Origin: Falsirhodobacter xinxiangensis
GTDB taxonomy: Bacteria > Pseudomonadota > Alphaproteobacteria > Rhodobacterales > Rhodobacteraceae
DNA: 64,000 nt
Direction of reading: 5' to 3'
NCBI RefSeq assembly: GCF_004959935.1
Contig: NZ_SMYN01000008.1
Span: 352 to 64,351 of the forward strand
In this document: positions 49,591-64,000 of the stretch, piece after piece
Layout of the letters: each line of letters opens with the position of its first letter
How positions within the stretch are numbered: the first letter of the stretch is position 1
Program-made: the position numbers and the translations under genes
The notes under the pieces: generated by a model
What the model was told of the DNA's origin: nothing
Databases searched by the model: none
The model's input: only the letters and a program-made list of their open reading frames with translations

Positions 49591-50504
49591 TCCTACGGGC
49601 CCTCGGGCGGTTCGTGCTTCAGGCCGTGCCCGTCCTCTATATCGTGTCGCTGATCGTCTTCGTCCTCGTCTATCTGACGGGCGATCCGACGGTCATGCTC
49701 ATCCCCGAGGATGCGACCGAAGCGGACCGGCTGCGGCTTGTGGCGGCTTGGGGGCTCGACCAGCCTGCGCATGTTCAATACCTGCGATACATGGGCAACC
49801 TGCTGCGCGGCGATTTCGGGCAGTCCTATTACTATGGCACTTCGGCCCTGCCCGTGGTGCTGGAACGCCTGCCCGCAACGCTGCTGCTGACGGCGGGGGC
49901 GATGGTGGTCGCCATCGTCATCGCGGTTCCGGCGGGGATCTTCGCCGCCCTGCGCCGCAACACGCCGGTCGATTTCGCCGTGTCCGGCATGGCGGTGCTG
50001 AGCAAGGCGATGCCGAACTTCTGGGTCGGGATCATGCTGATCCTGATCTTCGGCGTGCAGCTTCGTCTGCTGCCGGTATCGGGCGCCGGCAGTTTCGCGC
50101 ATCTGATCCTGCCAGCCGTGACGCTGGGCACCGCATTTGCGGGCGATCTGGCGAAACTGGTCCGCGCCAGCCTGCTGGAGGCGTTGGGGCAGGATTACAT
50201 CCGCACCGCCCGCGCCAAGGGCATCCCGTCTTCCGTCATCGTCCTGAAACACGCGCTGCGCAACGCGGCGATCCCGGCGGTCACGATGACCTCGTTGAAC
50301 GTGATCGCGCTTCTGGGCGGCGCGCTGATCACCGAAACCGTGTTCGCATGGCCGGGGCTGGGGCAGCTTGTGGTGCAGGCGATCTATACCAAGGACATGG
50401 CCGTCATCCAGATCGCGATCCTCGTGATCACGGTGATGACGCTGCTGATCAATTTCATCACCGATCTTCTGTATCGGCTGATCGACCCGAGGATCCGCCT
50501 GTGA
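49587..50504 (+). CDS. Dpp-type ABC permease (DppB-like)
   Basis: A 305-residue permease with six TM segments. The EAA region is VRASLLEALGQDYIRTARAKGI and the C-terminus is DLLYRLIDPRIRL. The start overlaps the binding-protein stop in ATGA. Confidence 0.92.
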   Translation: MILRALGRFVLQAVPVLYIVSLIVFVLVYLTGDPTVMLIPEDATEADRLRLVAAWGLDQPAHVQYLRYMGNLLRGDFGQSYYYGTSALPVVLERLPATLLLTAGAMVVAIVIAVPAGIFAALRRNTPVDFAVSGMAVLSKAMPNFWVGIMLILIFGVQLRLLPVSGAGSFAHLILPAVTLGTAFAGDLAKLVRASLLEALGQDYIRTARAKGIPSSVIVLKHALRNAAIPAVTMTSLNVIALLGGALITETVFAWPGLGQLVVQAIYTKDMAVIQIAILVITVMTLLINFITDLLYRLIDPRIRL

Positions 50505-51370
50505 CCGATATGACCGAAACCCGGCGTGCCGGCTTCTTTCGCGCGCTGCTGTCCAGCCGGGCGGGGATGCTTGGGGCGGGGCTGCTGGCGCTGATCGTGC
50601 TGGCGGCGCTGCTGGCCGACTGGCTGCCCATCGCGAACCCGACCCGGCGCAGCCTTGCGATCCGCCTGCTGCCGCCGATCTGGGCCGAAGGCGGGGTGCC
50701 GGCGCATCTGCTTGGCACCGATGCCCAAGGGCGCGACATCCTTGCCCGTATCGTCCATGGCGCGCGCAGTTCGCTGATCGTGGGGATGGCGGCGGTGGCG
50801 CTGTCGGGGCTGATCGGCATGGTGCTGGGGCTGATCGCGGGGATGCGCGGCGGGATCGTGGACATCGTGCTGATGCGGATCGTGGATGCCATCCTCGCCA
50901 TTCCGACGATGCTTTTCATGCTGGTCGTGGCGCTGGTCGCGGGAACCGGGATCGCGCCGCTGGTTCTGGTGATCGCTGCGACGAACTGGGTCAACTATAC
51001 CCGCATCGTCCGGGCCGAGGTTCTGCGGGTCAAGGACATGGATTTCGTCGCCGCCGCCCGCATCAGCCGGGTCGGGACGATTCCGCTGATGCTGCGCCAT
51101 ATCGTGCCGAACATCCTGCCCGCCTTCGTGGTGGTCGCGACGTTGAACGTCGGCTCGGTGATCCTGACCGAAAGCTCGCTGTCCTTCCTTGGCTTCGGCA
51201 TCCAGCCGCCCGCGATTTCCTGGGGGCAGATGCTGTCCGAGGGGCGCGAGGTGCTGGCGACAAGCTGGTGGGTGTCCACCTTCCCCGGCGTCGCGCTGAC
51301 GCTGACGGTGTTCTCGATCATCCTGCTGGGCGACTGGCTGCGCGACCATCTTGACCCGAGGCTGCCATGA
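50501..51370 (+). CDS. Dpp-type ABC permease (DppC-like)
   Basis: A 289-residue permease with the family motif HLLGTDAQGRDILARIVHG and a final LRDHLDPRL. GTG 50501 overlaps the DppB-like stop (GTGA); ATG 50510 is the alternative. The next gene overlaps in ATGA. Confidence 0.92.
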   Translation: MTDMTETRRAGFFRALLSSRAGMLGAGLLALIVLAALLADWLPIANPTRRSLAIRLLPPIWAEGGVPAHLLGTDAQGRDILARIVHGARSSLIVGMAAVALSGLIGMVLGLIAGMRGGIVDIVLMRIVDAILAIPTMLFMLVVALVAGTGIAPLVLVIAATNWVNYTRIVRAEVLRVKDMDFVAAARISRVGTIPLMLRHIVPNILPAFVVVATLNVGSVILTESSLSFLGFGIQPPAISWGQMLSEGREVLATSWWVSTFPGVALTLTVFSIILLGDWLRDHLDPRLP

Positions 51371-52983
51371 CCGGTCCCGTCCTTCGTTATCGCAATGCCG
51401 GGATCGAGATCGGCGGCCGCAGCCTCGTGCGCGGCGTCGATCTGGAGGTGCACCGGAACGAGATCGTGGCGCTGGTGGGCGAATCCGGGTCCGGCAAGAC
51501 GCTGACCGCGCTGTCCACGCTGGGCCTGTTGCCACCCACGGCGCGGTTCACGGCGGATGAGGCGGTGCTGAACGGGCACGACCTGCGCGGCCTGCGGACC
51601 GAGGGCGACTGGCGTGCCCTGCGCGGGTCCGATGTGGGCATCGTGTTCCAGGAACCGCTGTCGTCGCTGAACCCCGTCCTGACCATCGGCGACCAGATCG
51701 GCGAGGTGCTGCGATACAAGCGCGGCATGCCCCGCCGCCAGCGTCGGACCGAGGCGGCGGACCTGCTTGCGCGGATGCATCTGGCCCGCCCGGCGGAACT
51801 GCTGGACGAATACCCGCACCAGCTTTCGGGCGGGATGCGGCAGCGGGTGATGCTGGCCATCGCCATGGCGGGCGAGCCGTCGCTGCTGGTGGCCGACGAG
51901 CCGACCACCGCGCTGGACAATTCCGTGCAGGCGCAGGTGCTGGAGCTGATCGTGGAGACAGCCGAGCAGACCGGGGTGGGGGTGCTGTTCATCACCCACG
52001 ATCTGTCGGTCGTGGCGCAGGTGGCCGACCGCGTGGCCGTGATGCGCGGCGGCGAGATATTGGAATCCGCGCCGGTGGGCCGCTTGTTCAAGGCCCCCGA
52101 GGATGATTACACCCGCCGCCTGATCCGCCTTGCGCCGAAGGTTCCCGCGGTGATGCGCGATGCGTCGCTTGCCCAGCCCGCACCGCCCGCGCCGAAGCCG
52201 CTGCTGGAATTGCGCGGCATCACCAAACGCTATTCCGCCGGCTGGCGGGGGCAGGGGACGCTGGCGCTGGACAACGTCTCGCTGATGGTGAACGAGGGCG
52301 AGACGCTGGGCCTTGTCGGCGAATCCGGGTCGGGGAAATCCTCGCTGGCGCGGATCGTCACGGGGCTGGCGCGGCCGGACAGCGGCACGGCCCTGTTCGA
52401 CGGGCGCGATCTGTTCGCCAGCACCGACAACAGCGATCTGCAGATGGTGTTTCAGGACCCGTTCTCCTCGCTCAACCCCCGTATGCGGATCGGCGACAGC
52501 ATCGTGGAGCCACTCCGCGCAAGGGGAATGCGGCGCGGGGCGCTGCGGGACCGCGCGGCGGACCTGCTGGAAACGGTGGGGCTGCGATCTGCGATGTTCG
52601 ACCGGCTGCCGCACGAGCTTTCGGGCGGACAGCGCCAGCGTGTCGGCATCGCCCGCGCGTTGAGCGTGAAGCCCCGGCTTCTGATCTGCGACGAGCCTGT
52701 TTCCGCGCTGGACGTGTCGGTTCAGGCCGACATCCTTGCGCTGCTGGAACGGCTGCGGGCGGAATTCCGGCTGACCACGATCTTCATCGCGCACGGGCTG
52801 GACAGCATCTATTCCGTATCCGACCGGGTGGCGGTGATGCAGAAGGGCCGCGTGGTCGAGGAAGGCCCGCGCGATGCGGTCTTCGGCGCCCCGCAGCATG
52901 ACTACACGCGCCGCCTGCTGGGCGCGATCCTCGATTCCGACCCCGACAACAGCCGCTTTCGTCGGCGTGAGGAGACATTATGA
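51367..52983 (+). CDS. Fused DppD-DppF dual ATPase
   Basis: A 538-residue protein with two nucleotide-binding domains in one chain, each with Walker A (GESGSGKT and GESGSGKS), signature (LSGGMRQR and LSGGQRQR) and Walker B (LLVADEP and LLICDEP). The second H-loop reads IAHGLDS rather than SHD-type. Fused Dpp ATPases are common in this importer class. The stop overlaps the monooxygenase start (ATGA). Confidence 0.92.
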   Translation: MTGPVLRYRNAGIEIGGRSLVRGVDLEVHRNEIVALVGESGSGKTLTALSTLGLLPPTARFTADEAVLNGHDLRGLRTEGDWRALRGSDVGIVFQEPLSSLNPVLTIGDQIGEVLRYKRGMPRRQRRTEAADLLARMHLARPAELLDEYPHQLSGGMRQRVMLAIAMAGEPSLLVADEPTTALDNSVQAQVLELIVETAEQTGVGVLFITHDLSVVAQVADRVAVMRGGEILESAPVGRLFKAPEDDYTRRLIRLAPKVPAVMRDASLAQPAPPAPKPLLELRGITKRYSAGWRGQGTLALDNVSLMVNEGETLGLVGESGSGKSSLARIVTGLARPDSGTALFDGRDLFASTDNSDLQMVFQDPFSSLNPRMRIGDSIVEPLRARGMRRGALRDRAADLLETVGLRSAMFDRLPHELSGGQRQRVGIARALSVKPRLLICDEPVSALDVSVQADILALLERLRAEFRLTTIFIAHGLDSIYSVSDRVAVMQKGRVVEEGPRDAVFGAPQHDYTRRLLGAILDSDPDNSRFRRREETL

Positions 52984-54260
52984 GACAGATGCACCTTGGG
53001 CTGTTCCACCTGCCGCTGGGCCGTCATCCCTTCGGCTGGCGAATGCCCGGCGCGGCCGGCCACCCCGAGGATCTGGCCTGGGCTGTCCGCACCGCCCGCA
53101 AGGCCGAGGAAGGGCTGTTCGACGTGTTCTTCCTTGCCGACAGCCTTGTCGGGCCGGTGAAGGGCGAACAGGGCCGCCCCGGCGGGTTCGAGCCGATCAC
53201 CCTTCTGGCCGCCATCGCCGCGACCACCAGCAAGATCGGGCTGGTCACGACCATCTCGACCTCGTTTTCCGAACCGTTCAACGTCGCGCGGATGCTGGCC
53301 TCGATCGACCATATGAGCGGCGGGCGCGTCGGCTGGAACGTGGTCACGTCGCAGTCCAACGTCGCGGCGCAGAATTTTGGGCAGGATTTCCTTGCCGCCC
53401 ATGCCGAACGCTATGCCCGCGCGACGGAATACCTGTCGGTGGTCAAGGCGCTGTGGGCCAGCTGGCAGCCGGGGGCGCTGGCGCTGGATGCCGAACGCGG
53501 CGTGATGGTGGATTACGACAAGGTCCATGCGATCGACCACAAGGGCGAATTCTATTCGGTGCGCGGGCCGCTGAACGTGTCGCGTTCGCCGCAGGGGCAT
53601 CCGGTGATCTTTCAGGCCGGATCGTCCGGCGACGGGATCAAGCTGGCGGGGGGCGCGTCGGATGTCGCCTTCACCGCGCAGGACACCATCGACGAGGCGC
53701 TGGCCTACAAGGCGGATTTGCACGCGGCAGCGGCGGGGCGTGCCGACGGGCACCTGCCGCTGGTGATGCCGGGGGTGATGGTCATCACCGCGAAGACGGG
53801 GCGTGATGCGCGCGAGAAATTCGCGCAGATGCAGGCCAATACCGACATCGCCGCCGGAATCCGCCAGCTTTCGGGCCGGTGGGGATACGATCTGTCCGGC
53901 CACGACCCGGACGGCCCGGTGCCGGAGCCGTCGGCGGTCGTGCATGGCCAAAGCCGGGTGAAGATGCTGATGCAGAAGGCGCGCGAGGAGAACTACTCGC
54001 TGCGCGATCTGGCCGCGCTGGCCATCGCCTCGCACGGGCACCGCATCCTTGTCGGATCGCCGGCCGAGATCGCGGACGATCTGCAACGCTGGTTCGAAAG
54101 CGGGGCTGCGGACGGGTTCAACGTGATCCCGGCCTCGATGCCCGATGGGGTGGATGATTTCGTCGATCTGATCGTGCCGGAGCTTCAGGCGCGCGGGCTG
54201 TTCCGCACCAGCTATGCCGAACATACGCTGCGCGAACGGCTGGGGCTGCCCGCCGTCTAA
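52980..54260 (+). CDS. LLM-class flavin monooxygenase (NtaA/SnaA/DszA type)
   Basis: A 426-residue luciferase-like TIM-barrel oxygenase. LFHLPLGRHPFGWRMP at the start, EEGLFDVFFLADS and HMSGGRVGWNVVTSQ are subgroup hallmarks. These enzymes use FMNH2 from a separate reductase to cleave C-S or C-N bonds (nitrilotriacetate, EDTA, sulfones). Translational coupling to the importer implies that its substrate is the imported compound. No flavin reductase gene is adjacent. Confidence 0.88.
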   Translation: MRQMHLGLFHLPLGRHPFGWRMPGAAGHPEDLAWAVRTARKAEEGLFDVFFLADSLVGPVKGEQGRPGGFEPITLLAAIAATTSKIGLVTTISTSFSEPFNVARMLASIDHMSGGRVGWNVVTSQSNVAAQNFGQDFLAAHAERYARATEYLSVVKALWASWQPGALALDAERGVMVDYDKVHAIDHKGEFYSVRGPLNVSRSPQGHPVIFQAGSSGDGIKLAGGASDVAFTAQDTIDEALAYKADLHAAAAGRADGHLPLVMPGVMVITAKTGRDAREKFAQMQANTDIAAGIRQLSGRWGYDLSGHDPDGPVPEPSAVVHGQSRVKMLMQKAREENYSLRDLAALAIASHGHRILVGSPAEIADDLQRWFESGAADGFNVIPASMPDGVDDFVDLIVPELQARGLFRTSYAEHTLRERLGLPAV

Positions 54261-54559
54261 CGCCGCTTGCGGGTGCCGCCCGGGACGCGCGACAGAAAGC
54301 CGGGCGGGCGGCGTTCGACCCATTGGATGAACGCCGCCAGTCTTGGATGGGTGCGCAGCGCCTCGATGGTGTTGAAGCGGCGGGCGAGGTCCGTCTCGCC
54401 CAGCGCCGCGTGGATTTCCTTGTGGCAGATGTGGTGAAGCAGCACGGTCGGACCCTTTGCGCCACCTTTGGCGCGGGGGATCAGGTGGTGCAGGCTTTGT
54501 GGAACGTCTGGCGGGATGGGCCGCTGGCAGAGGGGGCAGATCGGCGCACCCTCAGGCAA
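54257..54559 (-). CDS. HNH endonuclease-family protein, TTG start
   Basis: A 100-residue HNH protein: CPLCQRPI (zinc Cys pair), SLHHLIPRAKGG and LHHICHKEIHA (HNH core). TTG 54559 overlaps the DUF982 gene end by eight bases and is the only start covering the first Cys pair. Single-domain proteins of this kind are often of unknown nuclease target. Confidence 0.8.
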   Translation of the reverse strand: MPEGAPICPLCQRPIPPDVPQSLHHLIPRAKGGAKGPTVLLHHICHKEIHAALGETDLARRFNTIEALRTHPRLAAFIQWVERRPPGFLSRVPGGTRKRR

Positions 54560-54797
54560 GGCGGAATCCGGCCTCGCGCGCGGCCTCGATGAAGGCCAGC
54601 CGTGCCGCGCCGGGATCGGTCAGGCATTCGCGGGCCGCCCGCGCATAGGCGACGGCTTCGCCATGCTTCGGACCGCGGCGGTCGGGCCAGCGTTTTCCAA
54701 GGCGAAAAAGCGCCTGTTCGACCGTGGTGATGGATTTTGCAGCTCCGTCGGGGCCTTCGATCAAGGTGACGGGATTCCCCCAGTAAGTCTCTATCAT
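54552..54797 (-). CDS. DUF982-family protein
   Basis: An 81-residue protein; ALFRLGKRWPDRRGPKH followed by AARECLTDP is the DUF982 pattern seen widely in Rhizobiales/Rhodobacterales. Function unknown. ATG 54797 overlaps the UDG-type gene stop (ATGA). Confidence 0.78.
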   Translation of the reverse strand: MIETYWGNPVTLIEGPDGAAKSITTVEQALFRLGKRWPDRRGPKHGEAVAYARAARECLTDPGAARLAFIEAAREAGFRLA

Positions 54798-55393
54798 CCG
54801 CAAGATATGGGGGCGGCGGGCGGCGTTTCAAGCAGGTTGCGGACCCGTGCCTGCAGCGCGGGCAGCACCTCTGCCTCGAACCACGGGTTGCGGCGCATCC
54901 ATCCGGTCGAACGCCATGACGGATGCGGCAGCGGCAGGACATCGGGCAGATGGCGACGAAAATCGCGGACCCGTTCGGTCATCACCCCCGGCCCGAGCAC
55001 GTGGTTCTGCGCATGCGATCCGATCAGAAGCGTCAGCCGGATGCCGGTCGCCTGCCGCAACAGCCGGTCACGCCAGATCGGCGCGCATTCGCGGCGGGGC
55101 GGGGCATCGCCGCCTGCCCGCCGTCCGGGATAACACAGCCCCAGGGGCAGGATCGCGAAACCGGACGGATCGTAGAAAACCTCCGGCGTCACGCCCAGCC
55201 ATTCGCGCAACCGGCGGCCCGAGGCGTCGTCGAAGGGGATGCCCGTCGCATGGGCCTTCGTGCCCGGCGCCTGACTGGCGATCAGGATGCGCGCGCCGGG
55301 CGCGATGCTGAGGATCGGGCGGGGGCCAAGTGGCAGGTCCGCACAGCGATGGCAGGCGCGGACCTCCTCCAGCAGCGTTGCAAGGGTTTCCAT
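54794..55393 (-). CDS. Uracil-DNA glycosylase superfamily protein
   Basis: A 199-residue UDG-fold protein. LIASQAPGTKAHATGIPFDD is the active-site loop (family 4/5-like Gly-x-x-Pro region), and LPLPHPSWR near residue 160 is the His-Pro-Ser motif. It lacks an obvious four-Cys Fe-S set (one CHRC pair is near the N-terminus). It opens a three-gene operon with DUF982 and HNH genes. Confidence 0.82.
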   Translation of the reverse strand: METLATLLEEVRACHRCADLPLGPRPILSIAPGARILIASQAPGTKAHATGIPFDDASGRRLREWLGVTPEVFYDPSGFAILPLGLCYPGRRAGGDAPPRRECAPIWRDRLLRQATGIRLTLLIGSHAQNHVLGPGVMTERVRDFRRHLPDVLPLPHPSWRSTGWMRRNPWFEAEVLPALQARVRNLLETPPAAPISCG

Positions 55394-55432
55394 CGCCCTC
55401 AGATGGGGATGACGGGGCGTTGCGGGAAGGGG

Positions 55433-55558
55433 TTATCGCGCCAGCCCGTGCCGCGCGAACGAGGCGGCGACGGTGCCATCGGCCTTCATCGCGTCCACCA
55501 GTTCCGACGCGGATCGCGCCTTCGGGGGCGAGGCCAGCGTCAATCGCGCCGCAGCCTC
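55433..55558 (-). pseudogene. C-terminal remnant of a polar amino-acid binding protein
   Basis: Reading on the minus strand to the TAA at 55435-55433 gives LASPPKARSASELVDAMK then ADGTVAASFARHG, the usual end of family 3 solute-binding proteins. No start or upstream part remains: the frame runs straight into the end of the C39 ABC transporter gene. It is probably the stump left when the bacteriocin-type locus was inserted or when DNA was lost. Confidence 0.5.
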
Positions 55559-57695
55559 AGGCCGTGTGGATCACCTTGCTGGGGCGCTTGGGGATTTCCT
55601 CGACCCGGCCCTCGCCCACACGCAGCCAGCGGCTGGCGCGTTCGATCAGCGCCGGGCGGTGCGCGATCACGATGCGCGTCACGGGCAACGAGGAGATGAG
55701 GTCCGCGATCGCCCGCTCGGTGGATTCGTCCAGATTGGCGGTGCCTTCGTCCAGCAACAACAGGCGCGGCTGGCGGTAGAGGGCGCGAGCCAGCAGCACG
55801 CGCTGGCGCTGCCCGCCGGACAGGGCCGACCCCATGTCGCCCACCAGCGACAGGTATTGCATCGGCATCCGGGCGATATCCTCGTGAACCTGCGCAGCCA
55901 TCGCGGCGGCGGCGACACGCTCCATGTCCATCTCGGGGTCGAAGAAGGCGATGTTGTCGGCGATGCTGCCGGACAGAAGCTGATCGTCCTGCGCCACGAC
56001 GCCGATCTGGCCGCGCCATGCCCGCCACAGTTCCGGCGAGGCGGGCTGGCCGTCCAGCAGGATCTGGCCGGATTCCGCCTGGTGCAGGCCCAGAAGCAGT
56101 TTCGCCAGCGTGGTCTTGCCACCGCCCGACGCGCCGGTGATCGCGACGAAATCCCCCGGCGCGATCGACAGCGACACGTCCTTCAGCACCAAGGGCGAGC
56201 CGGCGCCATAGCGGAAATCCACGCTGCGCAGGTCGATCCCGCCCTTCACGTCGATCATGCGCTGCGGACGCCCCGAAACATGCGCCACGTCGGGCTCTGC
56301 GGTGACGATGTCGCCCAGCCGTTCCAGATGCAGCTTCAGCAGGCGGAACTGCATCACCTCGGCCACCAGCGATTGCGCGCGGTCGCTGAAGGTCTGGCGG
56401 AAGGACAGGAACGCCATCAGCATCCCGACCGAGAAGCCTTCGGCATTCAGGATCATCCGCGCGCCAAGATAGATGACCAGCACCGTCTGGATGCCGATGA
56501 CCACGTTCTGCAGGAACCGCAGCGTGATCTCGTATTTTCCGACCCGGACCGAGGCGTTGATGACCGAGGCGAAACGGTTGCGCCATTTGCCCTCTCGCTC
56601 CGTCTCGCCGCCCATCAGCTTGATCGTGGGCATAGCGCGGACGGTTTCGATCAGGTGCGACTGCTCCGACGCCATCGTGACGATGTTCTCCTCGGTCGCG
56701 GCGCGGGTCGCGGGATAGAAGGCGAAGCCAAGGCCCAGCACCATCAGCAGCGACAGGATCACCACCACCGCCAGCATCGGCGAATAAAGGAACAGCACCC
56801 CCGCCGCGATCACCGCCATCAGCCCGTCCACCATCGCGGAAACCATGCCCCGCGTCAGCGCATCCTGAATGGCGCTGGTGGATTCAATGCGGGACATGAT
56901 GTCGCCCACATGGCGTTTCTCGAAATAGGGCACCGGCAGGCGCATCAGGTGGCGCACGATGTTGCCGACGATCTGAAACGACATCATCGAGCCCAGAAGC
57001 CGCAGCACCCAGTTGCGCAGCGCCTCCAGCGCGGCATGCATCACGGTCAGCGCGCCGAAGCCCAGCGCCAGCACGGTCAGAAGGCTGCCATCGGCCCGCC
57101 CGATCGCCTCGTCCACCACAAGCTGGATGTGGAAGGGCATGGCGAAGGTCGCGATCTGGAACACCAGCGACAGGGCCAGCACCTGAAAGATCGCGCGGCC
57201 CATCCCTTCGGTTTTGGACCAGAGCGAGGTCAGCTTGACCGGGATCTTCGCCTCGGCCTTCTGGAAATGTTCGGCGGGCTGCACCTCCAGCACGACGCCG
57301 GTGAAATGGTTGGCGAATTCCTCCAGCGGCAGGGTGCGTGCGCCGCGGGCGGGGTCGTGGATGACGGCCTGTTTCGCGGTGATGGATTTCAGCACGACGA
57401 AATGGTTCAGGTCCCAATGCAGGATCGCCGGAAGCCGCACGTCCTTCAGGGCCTGAAGCCCGACCCGCAGCGCGCGCGGGGCCAGCGACAACTGTTCTGC
57501 CAGTTGCATCAGGTTGCGCAGCGTCGCCCCGGTCAAGGACAGCGAGAATTGCTGCCGCAGCCCGTTCAGGTCGATGTCATGCCCGTGATACCGCCCGACC
57601 ATCGCCATGCAGGCAAGCCCGCATTCGGCGGATTCGGACGCGCGGATTTCCGGCAGCCGGCGGCGGCCCATGAAGTTCAGCTCGGCAATGCTCAT
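55557..57695 (-). CDS. C39-peptidase-containing ABC exporter (PCAT)
   Basis: A 712-residue bacteriocin-type ABC transporter. The N-terminal C39 peptidase has a complete triad: Cys25 (ESAECGLAC), His98 (DLNHFVVL) and Asp114 (HDPARG). Next comes a six-TM exporter domain, then an ATPase with Walker A GASGGGKT, signature LSGGQRQR and LLLLDEG. Such proteins cleave double-glycine leaders and export the core. It is the last gene of the peptide operon; ATG 57695 overlaps the HlyD stop (ATGA). Confidence 0.92.
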   Translation of the reverse strand: MSIAELNFMGRRRLPEIRASESAECGLACMAMVGRYHGHDIDLNGLRQQFSLSLTGATLRNLMQLAEQLSLAPRALRVGLQALKDVRLPAILHWDLNHFVVLKSITAKQAVIHDPARGARTLPLEEFANHFTGVVLEVQPAEHFQKAEAKIPVKLTSLWSKTEGMGRAIFQVLALSLVFQIATFAMPFHIQLVVDEAIGRADGSLLTVLALGFGALTVMHAALEALRNWVLRLLGSMMSFQIVGNIVRHLMRLPVPYFEKRHVGDIMSRIESTSAIQDALTRGMVSAMVDGLMAVIAAGVLFLYSPMLAVVVILSLLMVLGLGFAFYPATRAATEENIVTMASEQSHLIETVRAMPTIKLMGGETEREGKWRNRFASVINASVRVGKYEITLRFLQNVVIGIQTVLVIYLGARMILNAEGFSVGMLMAFLSFRQTFSDRAQSLVAEVMQFRLLKLHLERLGDIVTAEPDVAHVSGRPQRMIDVKGGIDLRSVDFRYGAGSPLVLKDVSLSIAPGDFVAITGASGGGKTTLAKLLLGLHQAESGQILLDGQPASPELWRAWRGQIGVVAQDDQLLSGSIADNIAFFDPEMDMERVAAAAMAAQVHEDIARMPMQYLSLVGDMGSALSGGQRQRVLLARALYRQPRLLLLDEGTANLDESTERAIADLISSLPVTRIVIAHRPALIERASRWLRVGEGRVEEIPKRPSKVIHTA

Positions 57696-58954
57696 CCCAG
57701 ACGTCCCACTGCATAGATCGGATCGAGCAGCCATTCGACCAGCGTGCGGCGGTCGATCACGATGCTGGCCGACAGAAGCATCCCCGGCTGCACCGGAATG
57801 TCCTGCCCATAGGCGGTGACCGCATCGCGATCCAGTTCGACCTTCACGCGGAACACCGGCTCGTTCACCTCCAGCCCGGGAATGGCGACCTCGGTCGGGG
57901 CAAGGACGGTGCGCGAGACGCTGCGGACAGCGCCCTCGGCCGCGCCGAATTTCTGATAGGGGAAGGCCTGATACATCAACTGCACCTCCTGCCCTTCGGT
58001 GATGAACCCAGCAGAGCGGGAGGGGACGTAGAGTTCCGCCTCCAGCGTCGATCCTTCGGGGGTGACGACGGCCAGCACCTGCTGGGCGGCCACGGTCTGA
58101 CCCCGCGCGACCGGCACGGCGACCACGCGGCCCGCGACGGTCGCGCCCGCGTGATAGGTGTTCTGCACCGCCATTTCCGTCCCCTGCTGGGCCAGCTGCG
58201 CCTGGCTGGCGCGGGCCTGCGCATCGGCGGCGCGGATGGAAATCGGCAGGACATGAAGTTCGGCGTCGATCTGGTCGATCTGGCGTTCCATCGCCATGAC
58301 GCTGGCGCGGATGTCGACCAGTTCCTGTTCGGCGACCAGCACGGCCATCGCGGCTTCCTCGACGCTTTTGGTGCTGGCATATCCGCGCGCGGCAATCGTG
58401 CGGACGCGTTCGGCGTTGGAATGCATCAGGTCCACCCGTTCGGTCATCATCGAAACCCGGCCCCGCGACTGGTCCAGTTCGCGCTGCATCGCGTCGCGCT
58501 GCGACCGCAGGCCCTGCTCCTCGGCGATCAGCTTCTGCCGCTCCGCCTCGGCCGAGGCGCGGACGGCCTCGATCTGGGTGCGAAGCTGCGTCTCCAGCAT
58601 CTGGCCGACATTGCCGGTGTCCAGATCCGAGGACAGGCGCAGTTTCGCCATGGACTGCCCGGCGGCGACGGTGTCGCCCTCGCGGATCGGCAATTCCTCG
58701 ATCACGCCGCCGTTGCGGGCGGTGACGCGGATCAGCCCGCCCTCGGGCACGACCCAGCCCGGCACCGTTTCCATCCGGGCATAGGTGGCGGTGGTGGCGA
58801 AGATCACCGCACCGATGACGATGACGACCGCCAGCGCGATCAGAACCCGCATCCGCATGGACAGCGACAAGAGCACCTCGCCGTCCAGCGCGCGGGACTG
58901 GTATTGCACCGCCTGCTGGCGGAACAGCGGCGTGGGTTTGCGATCGTCGCTCAT
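57692..58954 (-). CDS. HlyD-family periplasmic adaptor
   Basis: A 420-residue membrane-fusion protein: one N-terminal TM (about residues 37-56), lipoyl half-motifs (GGVIEELPIREGDTVAAGQ and AGRVVAVPVARGQTVAAQQ) and a long alpha-hairpin between them. It bridges the C39 exporter to an outer-membrane TolC-type channel that is not encoded here. A strong hairpin (58979-58998) separates it from the precursor genes. Confidence 0.9.
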   Translation of the reverse strand: MSDDRKPTPLFRQQAVQYQSRALDGEVLLSLSMRMRVLIALAVVIVIGAVIFATTATYARMETVPGWVVPEGGLIRVTARNGGVIEELPIREGDTVAAGQSMAKLRLSSDLDTGNVGQMLETQLRTQIEAVRASAEAERQKLIAEEQGLRSQRDAMQRELDQSRGRVSMMTERVDLMHSNAERVRTIAARGYASTKSVEEAAMAVLVAEQELVDIRASVMAMERQIDQIDAELHVLPISIRAADAQARASQAQLAQQGTEMAVQNTYHAGATVAGRVVAVPVARGQTVAAQQVLAVVTPEGSTLEAELYVPSRSAGFITEGQEVQLMYQAFPYQKFGAAEGAVRSVSRTVLAPTEVAIPGLEVNEPVFRVKVELDRDAVTAYGQDIPVQPGMLLSASIVIDRRTLVEWLLDPIYAVGRLG

Positions 58955-58978
58955 GTCCGTGTCCCGTGAAATGGGGAA

Positions 58979-58998
58979 GGGGCGCCCGGTGGCGCCCC
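58979..58998 (-). terminator. Attenuator-like hairpin between precursor and exporter genes
   Basis: GGGGCGCC-CGGT/ACCG-GGCGCCCC, an 8-bp perfect stem with a 4-nt loop in the 50-bp gap before the HlyD gene. On the minus strand it is followed by TTCCCCATTT. It would give more precursor mRNA than exporter mRNA, as in many bacteriocin operons. Confidence 0.6.
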
Positions 58999-59004
58999 GC
59001 CCGG

Positions 59005-59190
59005 TCAGTCGTTGCGGTTGTCGCGTTCCGCCCGGTCCTTGCCGACGCCATAGCCGAAGGCGACACCGCCTGCCGCCGCCCCGGTGAAGACCGCGGCGAT
59101 CCCCCATGCGATGGGCAGCGCGGGCAGCACGCCCCCTGCAACGGCGTCGATGTTTGCGTTGTCCAGTTCGTGAATGGTCATCTCGTTCAT
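59005..59190 (-). CDS. Double-glycine precursor peptide A (61 aa)
   Basis: The leader ends ELDNANIDAVAGG (cleavage after Gly20), followed by a 41-residue core. The core is hydrophobic and glycine-rich with a charged tail, GYGVGKDRAERDN. GAAGGAGA precedes ATG 59190. It is the precursor closest to the export genes. The tail motif recurs in the 46-residue peptide encoded at 59204. Confidence 0.75.
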   Translation of the reverse strand: MNEMTIHELDNANIDAVAGGVLPALPIAWGIAAVFTGAAAGGVAFGYGVGKDRAERDNRND

Positions 59191-59203
59191 CTTGTCGTCT
59201 CCT

Positions 59204-59344
59204 TCAGTTTTCGCGGTTTTCGATCCGAGCGTCCGCGAGGTTGTCGCGCTTGGCGGCATCCGAGCCGACGCCGTAGCCGCCGAACAGGGCGACGAAGAAC
59301 ACCAGCGTCAGCCCCCCTACGGCCACTATCGTTGGCATAGACAT
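59204..59344 (-). CDS. Leaderless small membrane peptide (46 aa), possible immunity protein
   Basis: ATG 59344, with GGAG upstream, encodes 46 residues: one TM segment (residues 5-22) and a tail GYGVGSDAAKRDN that mirrors the end of precursor A. It lacks the ELxxxxIxxVSGG leader. Immunity proteins of membrane-active bacteriocins are often of this size and topology, so that is a reasonable guess; a second unprocessed component is the alternative. Confidence 0.55.
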   Translation of the reverse strand: MSMPTIVAVGGLTLVFFVALFGGYGVGSDAAKRDNLADARIENREN

Positions 59345-59366
59345 CCCAAATCTCCGTGTTTCGCTG

Positions 59367-59573
59367 TCAGTCGCGGTTGGCCCAGTATCCGATGCCGAAC
59401 CCGACGCCTGCGCCGACGGCGGCCGTGCCGGTCACCGCAGCGCCGATCTTGATGGCGGCGACGACGGCGACGGGAATGACCGCGCCCGACACTTCGTCCA
59501 CTTCAAGGCTGTCCAGTTCGATCAGCTCGGCTTCGTTTTCGACCAGTTTCAGTTGGGTGTTTTCGGCAAGCAT
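59367..59573 (-). CDS. Double-glycine-type precursor peptide B (68 aa)
   Basis: A longer leader of 31 residues ends LDSLEVDEVSGA (Gly-Ala instead of Gly-Gly), followed by a 37-residue core, VIPVAVVAAIK onward, that is very hydrophobic with a GxxxG-like GAGVGFGIGY region and ends in NRD. AAAGGAGG precedes ATG 59573. The core looks membrane-active. Confidence 0.72.
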   Translation of the reverse strand: MLAENTQLKLVENEAELIELDSLEVDEVSGAVIPVAVVAAIKIGAAVTGTAAVGAGVGFGIGYWANRD

Positions 59574-59611
59574 GATGCCTCCTTTCAGGTTGTGCCCCGG
59601 ATGGGCGGTCT

Positions 59612-59746
59612 TTATCCGGCGAGCTTCTGGAGCACCCAGAGGATCGGCGGATAAATCGGTGGAATGATCGGCCCCGTCAGCCCGCCCGAGACCGTTTCGA
59701 TCTGTGCGGCGTCCAGTTCGACCAAGGTTGTTTCGTCGTCCCGCAT
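59612..59746 (-). CDS. Double-glycine precursor peptide C (44 aa)
   Basis: The leader VELDAAQIETVSGG (cleavage after Gly22) is followed by a short 22-residue core with PIIPPIYPPILWVLQ, a proline-containing hydrophobic peptide. Below the length at which most gene finders call an ORF. It is separated from precursor D by three bases. Confidence 0.68.
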   Translation of the reverse strand: MRDDETTLVELDAAQIETVSGGLTGPIIPPIYPPILWVLQKLAG

Positions 59747-59749
59747 GGC

Positions 59750-59920
59750 TCAGACCAGCGGCAGGCGCGGATGCGGGATCGGAAGCGGCGCAGGCAGCCG
59801 CGGCAGGGGCAGCGGCAGGGCGATCGGCGGGAAGGGCAGCGGGAAGATGCCGTCCAGCGCGCCCCCCGAAACCATGTCGATCTGACGCGGCTCCAGTTCG
59901 GTAATCTCGGTATGGCTCAT
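59750..59920 (-). CDS. Double-glycine precursor peptide D, proline-rich core (56 aa)
   Basis: The leader ends TELEPRQIDMVSGG (cleavage after Gly20). The 36-residue core has 13 prolines in alternating patterns such as PLPLPRLPAPLPIPHP, with no Cys and two Arg. It resembles, in composition only, proline-rich antimicrobial peptides. GGAGA precedes ATG 59920. It is the first gene of the minus-strand peptide operon. Confidence 0.7.
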   Translation of the reverse strand: MSHTEITELEPRQIDMVSGGALDGIFPLPFPPIALPLPLPRLPAPLPIPHPRLPLV

Positions 59921-60199
59921 TGCTTTCTCCATCCGGTCGCATTCGAAGGCGACCGGGGACATCAAGCCATGAACCGGACGGGTTCCCTATTCGGCAGGGT
60001 GGCGTAAGCCCTTGGACAGATGACCTAGTCCGGGCGCCAATCCCGCCATCTTCGGCGGGAACTTGCGCAGGGCGAAGGCGCGAAACACGCAGAAAATCGC
60101 CTCGATCCCGTGTTTTGGGCGATCCGGGCTGCCCCTTGCGGGGAATCGGGGCATCTTTGCGAAACGTCTATTTTCTTCAGATGCCCAGAGGAGACACCC
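59921..60199. promoter_or_regulatory. Divergent control region of the peptide operon and LuxR gene
   Basis: This 279-bp gap has no gene. It contains a perfect hairpin, TCCCGCC-ATCTTC-GGCGGGA (60041-60060), and an AT-richer stretch just before the LuxR start (TCTATTTTCTTC). No promoter boxes were resolved with confidence. Confidence 0.5.
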
Positions 60200-60589
60200 G
60201 TGAAGGATTTGATGACGCCCGACGCCGAAGGGGAAGATATCCGCACCAAGATCATTATCGCCAATGCCAACCCCGCTTTTCAGGACGACATGCGCCAGAT
60301 CATCGAACAGCTGCACCCGGATGCGCAGGTCATCATGATCTCGCCGCAGGCCGAGGTCGCCGCGCCTTGCCCCGAGGATGCGCTGGCGCGCCTTTCGGGC
60401 CGTCAGCGCGACGTTCTGGAGCTGCTGGTCGAGGGGCACACCAACAAGACCATCGCGCGGCGGCTGAGCATTTCGCCATCGACCGTCCGCGTCCATGTCT
60501 CGGCGCTGTTGCGTGCGCTTGGGGTCAACACACGCACGGCCGCCGCCGCGCTGGCCGCCCGCGGCTTTCGGCCGGGATTGCAGGCGTGA
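60200..60589 (+). CDS. LuxR-type (GerE) transcriptional regulator
   Basis: A 129-residue protein: an N-terminal receiver-like remnant (residues 1-45) and a LuxR HTH (LSGRQRDVLELLVEGHTNKTIARRLSISPSTVRVHVSALLRALGV, split here as several blocks). GTG 60200 has AGAGGAGA upstream. It is much shorter than full NarL-type regulators and lacks the receiver core. It is divergent from the peptide operon and is its likely regulator. Confidence 0.78.
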   Translation: MKDLMTPDAEGEDIRTKIIIANANPAFQDDMRQIIEQLHPDAQVIMISPQAEVAAPCPEDALARLSGRQRDVLELLVEGHTNKTIARRLSISPSTVRVHVSALLRALGVNTRTAAAALAARGFRPGLQA

Positions 60590-61438
60590 TCAGGACATGT
60601 CCATGATCTCTTCCTTGATCGCCGCGATGATGTCGCTGCGCTGGAGCGCCGAAGCCCCGGCCTTGGCGGCATAGCTGAGCGCCAGAAGCCGGATCACGCT
60701 GGCCAGCGCCGTATTCGATGGGCCAAGCCCGAAGCTGGCGACATGGCAGGGCAGCACCACGTCCGACAGGCGCTGAAGCTCCAGCTGCGACCCGCGATCT
60801 GTCAAGGTCACGATCGACAGCCGGCTGGTGCGGGCATAGGACAGCAGCGGCTTCAGCATCGCCGCGTGGGGCGGCAGGGTGATCAGCAGCAGCACGTCCT
60901 TCGGGCCAAGCATCGCCAGCTCTTCGGCCAGCGCGCTTTGCCCGATGCCCAGCAGCAGCACCCCATGCCGCAGCCGCGCCAGTTGCAGCCGGGCATAGCG
61001 CGCCAGCCCTTCATCGAGGCCCAGACCCAGAACCCAGATGCGCGGCGCTTCCGCGATCAGGTCGGTCGCGGCGGCAAGGGTGTCGGAGCGCATCTCCTCG
61101 AAGGTGCGGGTCAGGTTCTTCAACTCCAGTTCCAGATGGGCGCCGATGGTGCGGCCCATCGCGACCTGTCCCGACTGCGCCAGCGACATCTCATACGGTG
61201 CCGCGCGGTCGCGTTCCTCGCGCGCCTGTGCCTTCACCTCGTTGAAATCGCTGTAACCCAGATGCTGAAAGAACCGAGCCGCCGTGGCCTTGGACACGCC
61301 CGCCAACCGCGCGATCTCGGACGCGGGAAAGGTCAGGATGTCGTCCTGCCGGTCAAGGATCAGCTGCGCCAGCTTCTGCTCGCCCGCCGTCAGCCGGTCG
61401 TAGTTTTCCTGAATCCTGAGGACCAGTCTTGATGCCAT
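60590..61438 (-). CDS. MurR/RpiR-family transcriptional regulator
   Basis: A 282-residue protein: HTH (SEIARLAGVSKATAARFFQHLGYSDF) and SIS domain (WVLGLGLDEGLARYARLQLARL). It is divergent from the COG0212-like gene, with four TGAAAC half-sites between them. The ligand is probably a phosphorylated metabolite; the nearby transport genes suggest a thiamine-pathway compound. Confidence 0.88.
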   Translation of the reverse strand: MASRLVLRIQENYDRLTAGEQKLAQLILDRQDDILTFPASEIARLAGVSKATAARFFQHLGYSDFNEVKAQAREERDRAAPYEMSLAQSGQVAMGRTIGAHLELELKNLTRTFEEMRSDTLAAATDLIAEAPRIWVLGLGLDEGLARYARLQLARLRHGVLLLGIGQSALAEELAMLGPKDVLLLITLPPHAAMLKPLLSYARTSRLSIVTLTDRGSQLELQRLSDVVLPCHVASFGLGPSNTALASVIRLLALSYAAKAGASALQRSDIIAAIKEEIMDMS

Positions 61439-61482
61439 CGGTCACCTCCGTCCGGAAAAGATTAGCACCCCTCTTGCAAAGA

Positions 61483-61518
61483 TGAAACATTGGTTTCATA
61501 GAAATGAAACACTGAAAC
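61483..61518. promoter_or_regulatory. Operator with four TGAAAC half-sites
   Basis: TGAAAC at 61483, inverted GTTTCA at 61493 (a 16-bp dyad TGAAACATTGGTTTCA), and direct TGAAAC copies at 61505 and 61513. It lies between the divergent RpiR gene and the transport operon and is the likely RpiR binding array. Confidence 0.65.
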
Positions 61519-61534
61519 CCCACACAGCGATTCC

Positions 61535-62260
61535 ATGCAGCATCCCCGCCTCATCCGCCAGCGCATCTGGGACAGGCTTGCGCCCGTCGCGCGGCCCGAT
61601 GCCCGGTTCCATTTGGATTTCGAACAGTTCGTTCCCGATTTCCAAGGATCGGACGTCGCCACGGGGCGGATCGCCCATCTGGCCGATGCGCTGTGCTTCG
61701 TCACCCCCGACAATGCGATGCTGGCCCTGCGCGCGCATCTGATCCGCGAAGGGCGCAGCTTCCTCATGGCCAGCTACAACCTGCGCCGGGGGTTCCTGCT
61801 GGTCGATCCCGCCGCGATGCCCGCCCTGGCCCCCGAGGATCTGGCGACGCTGGACGTGATCGAACGCCATGCCCGGCCGCTGGACCTTGCCGCATTGGCG
61901 GCGATGGGGCGGATCGGACTGGTCGCGACCGGCGCATCCGCGGTGTCGGTGGACGGTATCCGCTTTGGCCGCGGGCATACGTTCCTCGATCTGGAATGGG
62001 GCATCTTTTCGCATCTGGGTCTGGTGGACGAGCGCACGAAGATCGCAGCCATCACCCATGACGTGCAGCTTGTGGACGATCTTCTGCACCTGTCGGACGG
62101 CGATCTGCCCGTGGACCTGATCGCGACGCCGACCCGGTTGGTCGTCGTGGCGCGGCAGGGCCGCAGGCCGCGCGGCGTCCGCTGGGACGGGATCGACACG
62201 GATATGATCGACACAATCCCCCCGCTGCGCGAATTGGCGCAGGACCGGGGCATCGCCTGA
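61535..62260 (+). CDS. 5-formyltetrahydrofolate cyclo-ligase-like protein (COG0212)
   Basis: A 241-residue MTHFS-fold protein. GHTFLDLEWGIFSHLGLVD and THDVQLVDDLL match the C-terminal part of the fold, but the ATP-binding basic N-terminal motif is weak. COG0212 paralogs often sit with thiamine-salvage genes and are thought not to act on folate. That agrees with the THI5-type importer downstream. No good ribosome site precedes ATG 61535. Confidence 0.78.
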   Translation: MQHPRLIRQRIWDRLAPVARPDARFHLDFEQFVPDFQGSDVATGRIAHLADALCFVTPDNAMLALRAHLIREGRSFLMASYNLRRGFLLVDPAAMPALAPEDLATLDVIERHARPLDLAALAAMGRIGLVATGASAVSVDGIRFGRGHTFLDLEWGIFSHLGLVDERTKIAAITHDVQLVDDLLHLSDGDLPVDLIATPTRLVVVARQGRRPRGVRWDGIDTDMIDTIPPLRELAQDRGIA

Positions 62261-62282
62261 ACACCGAAGCCGGGAGCTTTCC

Positions 62283-63245
62283 ATGACCCTTTCCCTTGAC
62301 CGCCGCCTTTTCCTTGGCCTTGCGGGTGCAGCCGCGTTGATGCCGATGCGCGGGCGGGCGGCCACGCCCTTCGCGTTTCAGGCAAGCTGGATCAACGACG
62401 CGGAATTCGCGGGCTATTTCCTTGCCGCCGACAACGGCTATTACACCGCCGAGGGGCTGGATCTGACCTATCTGTCCGGCGGGCCGGACGTGATCCCGGA
62501 AAGCACGCTCATCACCGGGCGGGCGGATCTGACGCTGACGACGCCCGACACCACGATCAAGGCGATCACGGAACAGGGTGCCCCTTTCAAGATCATCGGC
62601 GCGCAATACCAGAAGAACCCGCTGGGCATCGTGTCGCTGGCCAAGGCCCCGATCAACGAGCCGAAGGACCTGATCGGCAAGACGCTGGCCGTGCCGCCCG
62701 TCAACGTCATCTCGGTCGAGGCGATGCTGGCCGCGAACGGCATCACGCGCAATCAGCTGACCATCGTCCCCTATGCCTATGATCCGACGCCGCTGATCCG
62801 GGGCGAGATCGACGCCTCGGTCGATTTCACGACCAACGTGCCCTATACGATCAAGCTGGCGGGCGAGGAGGCGACGTCCTTCCTGCTGTATGACCACGGC
62901 TATACCGTGTTCAACGACACGGTGGTCGTGACCGAAGACGTGCTGGCATCGCGGCGCGGCGAGTTGGTCGCCTTCCTGCGCGCATCCCGCAAGGGATGGG
63001 AGGAGAATCTGGTCGATCCGGCGAAATACCCGCCGACATGGGCCGATACCTGGTTCGCAGGCACGGGCCGCGAGATCGACAACGAGGTGTTCTTCAACAC
63101 CGCGCAGAAACCGCTGATCGAAGCCGAAGGCGGCATCTTCGCCATGTCCGAAGACGCGATCGCAGCCAATATCGAGGCGCTGGCCAAGGTCGGCATCGCC
63201 GCCACGCGCGATCACTTCGACACCACGTTGCTTGAAGAAATCTGA
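62283..63245 (+). CDS. NMT1/THI5-like ABC importer binding protein (ThiY-like)
   Basis: A 320-residue secreted protein; the signal peptide begins [16 protein letters not shown], with twin Arg, so Tat export is possible. [22 protein letters not shown] is the THI5/NMT1 ligand-domain start. The family binds formylaminopyrimidine or related thiamine precursors, and also sulfonates or riboflavin. It overlaps the ATPase start by one base (TGATG). Confidence 0.85.
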
Positions 63246-64000
63246 TGCCCGTCGGTCTGTCCCTTTCCGGCGTCTCGCGCCATTTCGACGGGCGCGGCGG
63301 CAGGGTCGCGGCGCTGTCGGGCGTCTCGCTGGAGGTTGCTCCGGGGGCGTTCACCGCGCTGATCGGTCCTTCGGGCTGCGGGAAATCCACGCTTCTGCGG
63401 CTGGCGGTCGGGCTGGACCTGCCGGATGCGGGGCGCGTCTCGGTCGGGGGGCTGTCCCCGGCCGAGGCGGCGCGCAAGGGGCTGACCGGGATCGCGTTTC
63501 AGGACGCCGCGCTGCTGCCGTGGCGCAGCGTCGAGGACAACATCGCGCTGCCCTTCGATGTGCTGCGCCGTCCGCATGATGCCGCGCGCATCGCGGAACT
63601 GATCGCGCTGGTCGGGCTGACCGGGTTCGAAAAGGCCCTGCCGGGAGAGCTTTCGGGCGGCATGCGCCAGCGCGTCGCCATCGCCCGCGCCCTGGTCAAC
63701 GACCCCGAGATGCTGTTTCTGGACGAGCCGTTCGGCGCGCTGGACCAGATCCTGCGCCGCCAGATGAATGTCGAATTGCAGCGCATCTGGATGGAGAGCC
63801 GCACGACGACGCTGCTGGTCACCCATGGCATCGACGAGGCGATCTTTCTGGCCGACCGCGTGGTGGTGATGGCCGCCCGTCCGGGGCGGATCGCGCGCGT
63901 GATCGACATCCCGTTCCCGCGCCCGCGCCGGGCAGAGCTGTTCGGCACGCCCGAATTCGCCGCGCTGGAGGCCGAAATCGCAGGGGCGCTCGATGGCCAT
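63245..64000 (+). CDS. ABC importer ATPase (SsuB/ThiZ-like), 3'-truncated by window edge
   Basis: At least 252 residues, no stop before the window end. Walker [10 protein letters not shown], signature LSGGMRQR, Walker B MLFLDEP and VTHGIDEA are present. The protein should be nearly complete at the edge. A permease gene (ThiX/SsuC-like) would be expected just beyond 64000. Confidence 0.88.

What the first reader, a model, noticed from the sequence alone, without database searches (positions are those of the whole stretch)
55557..60589. Uncharacterised multi-peptide bacteriocin-like locus with C39 exporter
Seen: a C39-peptidase ABC exporter with intact Cys25/His98/Asp114, an HlyD adaptor, and four short genes whose leaders share ELxxxxIxxVSGG (variants AGG, SGA), plus a leaderless membrane peptide and a divergent LuxR regulator. 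Family knowledge: C39 exporters cut double-glycine leaders. Inference: this is a class II microcin/bacteriocin-type system in an alphaproteobacterium with four unrelated cores and no modification enzyme, an arrangement I do not recognise.
Basis: partly seen in the sequence, partly recalled or inferred. Interest (0 to 1): 0.88.

Follow-up and report, generated by a model that had tools for sequence, protein, structure and literature searches.

The report
Two-peptide bacteriocin operon with leaderless mimic
A bacterium carries a compact exporter operon whose two pore-type peptides resemble a known kind of bacteriocin, but which also encodes two proline-rich peptides and an unexported membrane peptide that looks like a matched copy of one toxin's end, perhaps its antidote.

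Summary
On the minus strand, four small genes with double-glycine leaders (P1, P2, P3, P5) and one leaderless membrane peptide (P4) precede an HlyD adaptor and a C39 peptidase-ABC exporter with Cys25/His98/Asp114; a LuxR-type HTH gene is divergent. All five small genes are collinear in a sister species, with dN/dS 0.07-0.37. The cores are not four unrelated ones. P3 and P5 are homologous glycine-zipper peptides meeting the published Cdz-like sequence definition; three P5 orthologues pass NCBIfam's class IIb cut-off, the window's own P5 falls just short. P1 and P2 are proline-rich. P4 shares P5's GYxxGxDxAxRDN tail and lies between P3 and P5 in 8 of 8 Paracoccus-type loci; a distant Phenylobacterium pair lacks it. 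P4 resembles its own genome's P5 more than other genomes' P5 (4 of 40,320 permutations reach the observed score; P4-P3 and P3-P5 do not pair so). Best reading: a class IIb/Cdz-like type I-secreted two-peptide bacteriocin, P4 a cognate unexported mimic giving immunity, plus accessory proline-rich peptides. Killing, contact dependence and immunity are inferred, not shown. New variant of a known kind.

The parts
59750..59920 (-). P1: 56-aa precursor, leader ...ELEPRQIDMVSGG, 36-aa core with 13 prolines (36%)
   Evidence: ortholog in G003 (78% aa identity over 54 codons, dN/dS 0.37 whole, 0.26 core); GGAG before ATG 59920 read from the sequence; an in-frame upstream ATG at 59932 is an alternative start
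59612..59746 (-). P2: 44-aa precursor, leader ...ELDAAQIETVSGG, 22-aa core (5 prolines) with a Trp/Lys end
   Evidence: G003 84% identity, dN/dS 0.24; homologues in L150, L152, L170
59367..59573 (-). P3: 68-aa precursor, leader ending VSGA, glycine-zipper core; proposed bacteriocin subunit A
   Evidence: G003 93% identity, dN/dS 0.07
59204..59344 (-). P4: 46-aa leaderless peptide, one predicted membrane helix, GYxxGxDxA tail like P5; proposed cognate immunity peptide
   Evidence: G003 93% identity, dN/dS 0.26; AlphaFold2 single helix 3-45, mean pLDDT 83.8
59005..59190 (-). P5: 61-aa precursor, leader ending VAGG, glycine-zipper core; proposed bacteriocin subunit B (class IIb type)
   Evidence: G003 81% identity, dN/dS 0.23; TIGR03949 19.2 bits here (cut-off 21.5), 25.0, 22.5 and 26.8 in G003, L053, L150
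57692..58954 (-). HlyD-family periplasmic adaptor
   Evidence: start at MSDDRKP set by conservation with G003
55557..57695 (-). C39 peptidase-containing ABC exporter, 712 aa
   Evidence: best-scoring solved structure 4ry2, a bacteriocin transporter of PCAT1 type
60203..60589 (+). Divergent LuxR/GerE-type HTH protein, 128 aa, no receiver domain matched; proposed regulator
   Evidence: tblastn matches beside the operon or its exporter in G003, L053, L054, L056, L150, L153, L154, none found in L052, L055, L152

Best explanation
A type I-secreted two-peptide (class IIb / Cdz-like) bacteriocin operon. Shown by sequence: P3 and P5 carry C39 double-glycine leaders and homologous glycine-zipper cores; the exporter has an intact C39 triad; a TolC-type outer-membrane channel is encoded elsewhere in the genome. 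Inferred: the C39 domain cuts the leaders, P3 and P5 leave through the ABC-HlyD-TolC conduit and together insert into, and permeabilise, the inner membrane of related cells, possibly while staying on the producer surface as CdzC does. P4, which lacks a leader and so should stay in the producer, forms one membrane helix ending in the same GYxxGxDxAxRDN tail as P5; because it tracks the P5 of its own genome, I propose it binds incoming P5 in the membrane and blocks pore assembly (immunity by an unexported mimic). P1 and P2 are proline-rich accessory peptides sent out by the same exporter. The divergent LuxR-type protein is the likely regulator.
For: Exporter and adaptor families; C39 triad in 100 of 100 aligned exporters; leader positions -4/-7/-12 as in LahT150 (PMC6363468, passages); one C39 match in the whole genome; TolC-like 471-aa ORF with two OEP matches on contig C12. 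P3 and P5 meet the four sequence criteria for Cdz-like proteins of PMC5380434 section 13. P5 orthologues of G003, L053 and L150 pass the TIGR03949 class IIb cut-off, and so does one P3-type peptide, L153:5448-5606 (24.2 bits over part of the model). Small genes conserved with dN/dS below 0.4. P4 lies between P3 and P5 in 8 of 8 Paracoccus-type loci. In 125 genomes of the Paracoccus siganidrum genus, strong P4 hits (E <= 1.3e-9) occur in 6, the same 6 that have strong P3 hits (E <= 4.8e-25); 5 of the 6 are in both profiles, G499 is in neither. P4-P5 within-genome pairing: 4 of 40,320 permutations (8 loci), 1 of 720 (6 lineages); controls P4-P3 19,838 and P3-P5 4,247 of 40,320.
Against: No activity, secretion or immunity was measured. 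Window P5 itself is below the TIGR03949 (19.2 vs 21.5) and Pfam Bacteriocin_IIc (19 vs 27.1) cut-offs; P5 of L052 (14.7) and L153 (17.7) are below and those of L152 and L170 do not match; of 9 P3-type peptides scanned, 1 passes. A more distant Phenylobacterium locus (L061) has a P3-like and a P5-like peptide (resemblance of one of them judged by eye) but no ORF of 18 aa or more between them, so P4 is not universal. P4 has one predicted helix, CdzI has three. P4-P5 pairing could reflect a structural partnership or old gene conversion; it is not confined to the tail (P4 N-terminal part 332 of 40,320, and 6 of 720), and same-codon use at shared residues is slightly higher within genomes (34 of 56) than between (166 of 322). 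Adhesion genes were not looked for, so contact dependence rests on analogy. Roles of P1 and P2 are unknown.
Confidence: 0.58

Rival explanations
1. P3-P5 is the bacteriocin, but P4 is a third structural partner (membrane anchor, chaperone or pore subunit) of P5 instead of an immunity peptide; immunity comes from an unlinked gene or from membrane composition.
For: P4 pairs with P5 but not P3, as any obligate partner would; one long predicted helix; L061 has a P3/P5-like pair without P4, so P4 is not always needed; the Cdz paper found immunity genes of Cdz-like loci hard to identify.
Against: No leader, so it should not leave the producer with P5; it is the only other small gene in the operon left for immunity, and bacteriocin immunity genes normally sit next to the toxin genes (established knowledge).
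Confidence: 0.27
2. Self-lysis peptides like the Neisseria Naps: bacteriocin-like peptides that promote stationary-phase autolysis and do not inhibit competitors.
For: Naps are three bacteriocin-like peptides with no detectable antimicrobial activity that promote autolysis (PMC11798529, outline and abstract only); this operon also has several membrane-active-looking small peptides.
Against: P1, P2 and P5 diverge faster than the exporter between sister species and P4 follows P5, which fits toxin/antidote turnover better than a fixed self-lysis role; the exporter at ortholog level is in 2 of 7 genomes of the genus.
Confidence: 0.1
3. A set of secreted signal or surface peptides (communication, adhesion), regulated by the LuxR-type protein.
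For: A LuxR-type gene stays beside the operon in several relatives; C39 exporters also send out signals in Gram-positive bacteria (established knowledge).
Against: Glycine zippers and class IIb profile matches in P5 orthologues; no receptor or histidine kinase among the operon genes.
Confidence: 0.07
4. A diffusible class II microcin-type system in which P1/P2 are the active antimicrobials and P3/P5 are helpers.
For: P1-type cores are 34-36% proline in the window, G003, L152 (two) and L170, with 2-4 tryptophans in L152 and L170, resembling animal proline- and tryptophan-rich peptides (recalled).
Against: P1/P2-type peptides are missing between LuxR and P3 in L153 and L053; P1-type net charge is only +1 to +3, low for that class (recalled).
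Confidence: 0.1

Closest known systems
Cdz system of Caulobacter crescentus (CdzA/B exporter, CdzC/D glycine-zipper toxins, CdzI immunity; PMC5380434: abstract, passages and sections 13, 16, 18, 32 seen)
   Same: Type I exporter without linked TolC; two small glycine-zipper peptides with leaders ending G[G/A/S] and short charged tails; small membrane peptide; peptides more variable than the exporter. A Caulobacter exporter fetched here (C. vibrioides DSM 9893, L059) is 66% identical; whether L059 is the cdz locus itself was not tested.
   Different: Toxins 61-68 aa here versus 84-86; P4 is a 46-aa one-helix leaderless peptide between the toxin genes, not a three-helix CdzI; one co-directional operon, where cdz has two divergent ones; two extra proline-rich precursors; contact dependence untested.
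Class IIb two-peptide bacteriocins, lactobin A/cerein 7B family (NCBIfam TIGR03949)
   Same: Double-glycine leader and GxxxG core; P5 orthologues in G003, L053 and L150 and one P3-type peptide in L153 score above cut-off.
   Different: Export through a Gram-negative tripartite system; the window's P5 and P3 are below the cut-off; P4 matched no Pfam or NCBIfam family at E <= 1.
Class II microcins of Enterobacterales, e.g. MccV with CvaA/CvaB/TolC (PMC9746304 and PMC10233263 seen in search listings only; details recalled)
   Same: C39-ABC + HlyD + unlinked TolC, unmodified double-glycine peptides.
   Different: Two homologous toxin-type peptides with an in-operon leaderless look-alike.
Neisseria Nap peptides (PMC11798529, outline and abstract)
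   Same: Several bacteriocin-like small peptides in one horizontally acquired island.
   Different: Those act in autolysis; no sequence relation was tested here.

Membership tests
Cdz-like systems (PMC5380434 section 13) | Toxin 60-151 residues | tested here: met
   P3 68 aa, P5 61 aa. P5 orthologues of 52-58 aa in G003, L052, L053, L152, L153, L170 fall short; P1 (56) and P2 (44) do not meet it.
Cdz-like systems (PMC5380434 section 13) | Leader peptide ending G[G/A/S] | tested here: met
   P1 GG, P2 GG, P3 GA, P5 GG
Cdz-like systems (PMC5380434 section 13) | One or two glycine zippers not interrupted by proline or charge | tested here: met
   P3 core GxxxG at 23, 25, 27; P5 core at 17, 22, 26, no P or charge inside; none in P1 or P2
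[quoted passage not shown]
   P3 ...YWANRD, P5 ...GKDRAERDNRND
Cdz-like systems (PMC5380434 section 13) | Type I secretion genes nearby | tested here: met
Cdz-like systems (PMC5380434 section 13) | Contact-dependent, surface-retained killing | not testable with these tools
   Needs competition and split-well assays
Cdz system proper | CdzI-type immunity protein with three membrane helices | tested here: not met
   Only P4, one predicted helix; the paper does not require a CdzI homologue for Cdz-like loci
Class IIb bacteriocin, TIGR03949 | Score above curated cut-off 21.5 | tested here: inconclusive
   Window P5 19.2 and P3 12 bits, below. P5 of G003 25.0, L053 22.5, L150 26.8 above; L153 17.7 and L052 14.7 below; L152 and L170 no match. 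P3-type: L153 first copy 24.2 above; L170 17.6, G003 12.8 below; L052, L053, L150, L152 and the second L153 copy no match
Class II bacteriocin PF10439 | Score above gathering cut-off 27.1 | tested here: not met
   Window P5 19 bits
C39 peptidase-containing ABC exporter (PCAT) | Cys/His/Asp triad, ABC membrane and ATPase domains | tested here: met
Bacteriocin immunity protein (P4) | Protects a sensitive cell | not testable with these tools
   Only sequence pairing with P5 shown

The most novel reading that the evidence does not exclude
Self-protection here works by an unexported copy of the toxin's own membrane end: P4 is a leaderless, co-evolving decoy of P5 that caps incoming P5 in the producer membrane, i.e. 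bacteriocin immunity by toxin mimicry; and the same operon ships bacterially made proline-rich (in relatives also tryptophan-rich) peptides, P1 type with 34-36% proline, a composition otherwise known mainly from insect and mammalian defence peptides (recalled), that work together with the pore-forming pair.
Probability: 0.25. Interest if true: 0.78.

Novelty: new variant of a known kind. Interest (0 to 1): 0.55.

Why it matters
The Cdz paper states that immunity proteins of Cdz-like loci were hard to identify (section 13). This locus family offers a concrete, testable candidate with a clear signature: an unexported peptide between the two toxin genes that matches its own P5. If right, immunity genes of other small-peptide bacteriocins could be sought as leaderless look-alikes. 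It also adds proline-rich double-glycine peptides. In the listings (the top 1-20 papers of each, judged by title and start of abstract; only three papers were opened) I saw none describing this operon or such peptides, so novelty in print is not proven.

Tried and rejected
Rejected: 'four unrelated cores'. Rejected for the window: a modified peptide (RiPP); Pfam of the operon and seven flanking ORFs gives RpiR, NMT1, luciferase-like, HNH, DUF982, UDG and 5-FTHF ligase families for the flanks; relatives L150 and L153 do carry an ATP-grasp-like gene beside the LuxR gene. Rejected: coding artefact of high GC (codon-position bias, dN/dS 0.07-0.37 for the small genes). In one search the P1 comparison failed because I gave a wrong start; redone. 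Promoter-like 1 and terminator-like 4 sites against 0.4 and 2.7 in shuffles; inverted repeats in the LuxR-P1 gap were not found in G003: no operator claim. PADLOC gave ABC-ATPase and HTH-type matches only. The combined P3/P5 profile in 394 family genomes gave 5 genomes with a match at E <= 0.01, strong only in the window's own. In plasmids no copy covering more than about 2% of 45000-64000 and, among the 5000 records kept, no exporter at 60% identity or more. AlphaFold model of P5 is weak (mean pLDDT 63.4); no fold search was run. A by-eye P4-P5 tail test was replaced by automatic whole-peptide tests. For L153 and L170, which have two P3 copies, I used the copy next to P4. Brevundimonas L067 shows a toxin / leaderless membrane peptide / toxin order, judged by eye and left out of counts; Phenylobacterium L061 has no P4. 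G514 and G502 had weak P3-profile hits (3.7e-4, 0.0035), not counted as P3.
Full report
Anatomy. On the minus strand, reading 5' to 3': P1 (59920-59750), P2 (59746-59612), P3 (59573-59367), P4 (59344-59204), P5 (59190-59005), HlyD (58954-57692), C39-ABC exporter (57695-55557, overlapping the HlyD stop). A LuxR/GerE-type HTH gene (60203-60589) is divergent. The exporter carries Peptidase_C39, ABC_membrane and ABC_tran domains; its best-scoring solved relative is 4ry2, a bacteriocin transporter of PCAT1 type. Cys25, His98 and Asp114 are kept in 100 of 100 exporters aligned (two rows are one sequence). PF03412 has one match in the genome. A TolC-type ORF lies on another contig.

Leaders. P1, P2, P3 and P5 have hydrophobic residues at -4, -7 and -12 before GG, GG, GA and GG, the positions shown to enter the C39 groove in LahT150 (PMC6363468, passages). 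A leader matrix trained on 33 leaders finds 113 hits in 88 relative loci against 8 in shuffled copies, and in the window exactly four, all here; the window's leaders and many of the relatives' are in the training set, so these counts are partly circular.

Conservation. In sister species G003 (exporter 98%, HlyD 97%) all five small genes are present in order, with identities of 78, 84, 93, 93 and 81% for P1 to P5 over aligned codons and dN/dS of 0.37, 0.24, 0.07, 0.26 and 0.23, against 0.04 for the exporter and 0.26 for LuxR. So the small genes are real and under selection, and P1, P2 and P5 change faster than the exporter.

Distribution. The exporter at ortholog level is in 2 of 7 genomes of the genus. 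A C39 match to its first 150 residues is in 29 of 394 family genomes and in 21 of 125 genomes of the genus of Paracoccus siganidrum. Genus-mate G004 keeps the right-hand flank (RpiR, 89%, and the two next genes, 78 and 82%) but has neither the LuxR gene, the exporter nor the tested left-hand genes within 8.5 kb, and no C39 match in its genome; so the operon is variably present, with the left border not defined. Exporters of 73-85% identity are in Paracoccus-type loci and of about 58-66% in Caulobacterales, Hyphomicrobium and some other alphaproteobacterial records.

The conserved module. P3-P4-P5 in that order occurs in the window, G003, L052, L053, L150, L152, L153 and L170: 8 of 8 Paracoccus-type loci with both P3 and P5. 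In 125 genomes of the P. siganidrum genus, strong P4 hits (E <= 1.3e-9) are in 6 and strong P3 hits (E <= 4.8e-25) in the same 6; 5 of these 6 contributed to both profiles, G499 to neither. P4 hits at E 0.008-0.05 in 13 further genomes are taken as chance. A distant Phenylobacterium pair (L061) has no ORF of 18 aa or more between its two peptides. L150 and L170 break off inside HlyD at a contig end, so their exporter is not seen in place; the contig of L150 has an exporter about 28 kb away beside a cysteine-rich peptide (L054).

P3 and P5 are homologous (BLAST 44% over 50 residues, E about 1e-9 against a 9-kb stretch, leader included; alignment) and have GxxxG zippers followed by a short charged tail. 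They meet the published sequence criteria for Cdz-like proteins (PMC5380434 section 13). P5 of G003, L053 and L150 and one P3-type peptide of L153 pass the NCBIfam class IIb cut-off; window P5 (19.2 of 21.5) falls short, as do the other eight P3-type peptides scanned.

P4. It has no leader, is predicted as one helix and ends in GYGVGSDAAKRDN (then a further charged stretch) against P5's GYGVGKDRAERDN. I tested whether P4 matches the P5 of its own genome: summed local alignment score 429 against a permuted mean of 312, reached by 4 of 40,320 permutations with 8 loci, and by 1 of 720 with the two close pairs collapsed. The same test gives 19,838 and 4,247 of 40,320 for P4-P3 and P3-P5. The signal is strongest in the C-terminal part (3 of 40,320) but also present in the N-terminal part (332). 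Shared residues use the same codon in 34 of 56 cases within and 166 of 322 between genomes, so recent gene conversion is not evident. This is what a cognate binding partner would show; immunity is my inference because P4 lacks an export signal and no other small gene in the operon is left for that task.

P1 and P2. P1-type cores (34-36% proline, net charge +1 to +3) stand before P3 in the window, G003, L152 (two copies) and L170; P2-type cores (0-23% proline, a Trp and a cationic end) in the window, G003, L150 (two), L152 and L170 (two). Neither is present in L153 and L053, and L052 cannot be judged because its contig starts at P3: so P1 in 4 and P2 in 5 of 7 assessable loci. P2 keeps PIYPPIxWxxxxLAG between the window, G003 and L152. 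Likeness to animal proline/tryptophan-rich antimicrobial peptides is recalled and rests on composition only.

Mechanism, with confidence. Export by the C39 system about 0.85; two-peptide membrane-acting bacteriocin about 0.7; P4 as immunity about 0.42; surface-retained, contact-dependent action as in Cdz about 0.3; P1/P2 antimicrobial about 0.4.

Verdict. The finding is real and mostly falls into a known kind (type I-secreted class IIb / Cdz-like bacteriocins). What looks new is the leaderless, toxin-matched peptide inside the toxin pair and the added proline-rich peptides.

Noticed in passing
L150:2038-3167, L153:6521-7638 (also precursors at L152:47-247, L053:2121-2327): In other Paracoccus-type loci stands a double-glycine precursor with TTLAxGEEDGG-type repeats; in L150 and L153 it is followed by an ORF with sub-cut-off NCBIfam matches to ATP-grasp peptide maturases (MvdC/MvdD and relatives; no Pfam match): a graspetide-like cluster, possibly sharing the exporter. 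Not seen in the window.
   Followed up: partly
L075:4497-4565, L079:8257-8325, L081:8220-8288, L082:8259-8327, L083:8278-8346, L089:8259-8327, L112:8273-8341; variants L084, L099, L076: Shortly after a C39 exporter in Hellea/Robiginitomaculum/Algimonas-type records: 22-aa ORFs, roughly MRELTxEExEIVTGG plus a 7-aa core such as RPIIVEW or TPIVIRN; L099 has the core IPVIDF four times, L076 RSIKT four times. Very small double-glycine peptides of unknown role.
   Followed up: partly
Exporter residue 19 (window 57641-57639, -): The position six residues before the catalytic Cys, a Gln proposed as oxyanion residue in other C39 enzymes (PMC6363468 passages), is Ala, Gly or Ser in 26 of 100 exporters aligned, the closest relatives L132, L052-L071, L074 and L152-L155, and Gln in the other 74.
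   Followed up: partly
L085:5078-5848: Five 38-41-aa double-glycine precursors in a row with 9-12-aa cores PQVxND... upstream of a C39 exporter in a Rubrivivax MAG.
   Followed up: no
L054:4373-4606, L055:4380-4631, L056:1499-1720, L154:4807-4995: Paracoccus-type exporters of 73-81% identity beside cysteine-rich or Gly/His/Cys-rich cargo instead of P3-P5: similar exporter, different payload.
   Followed up: no
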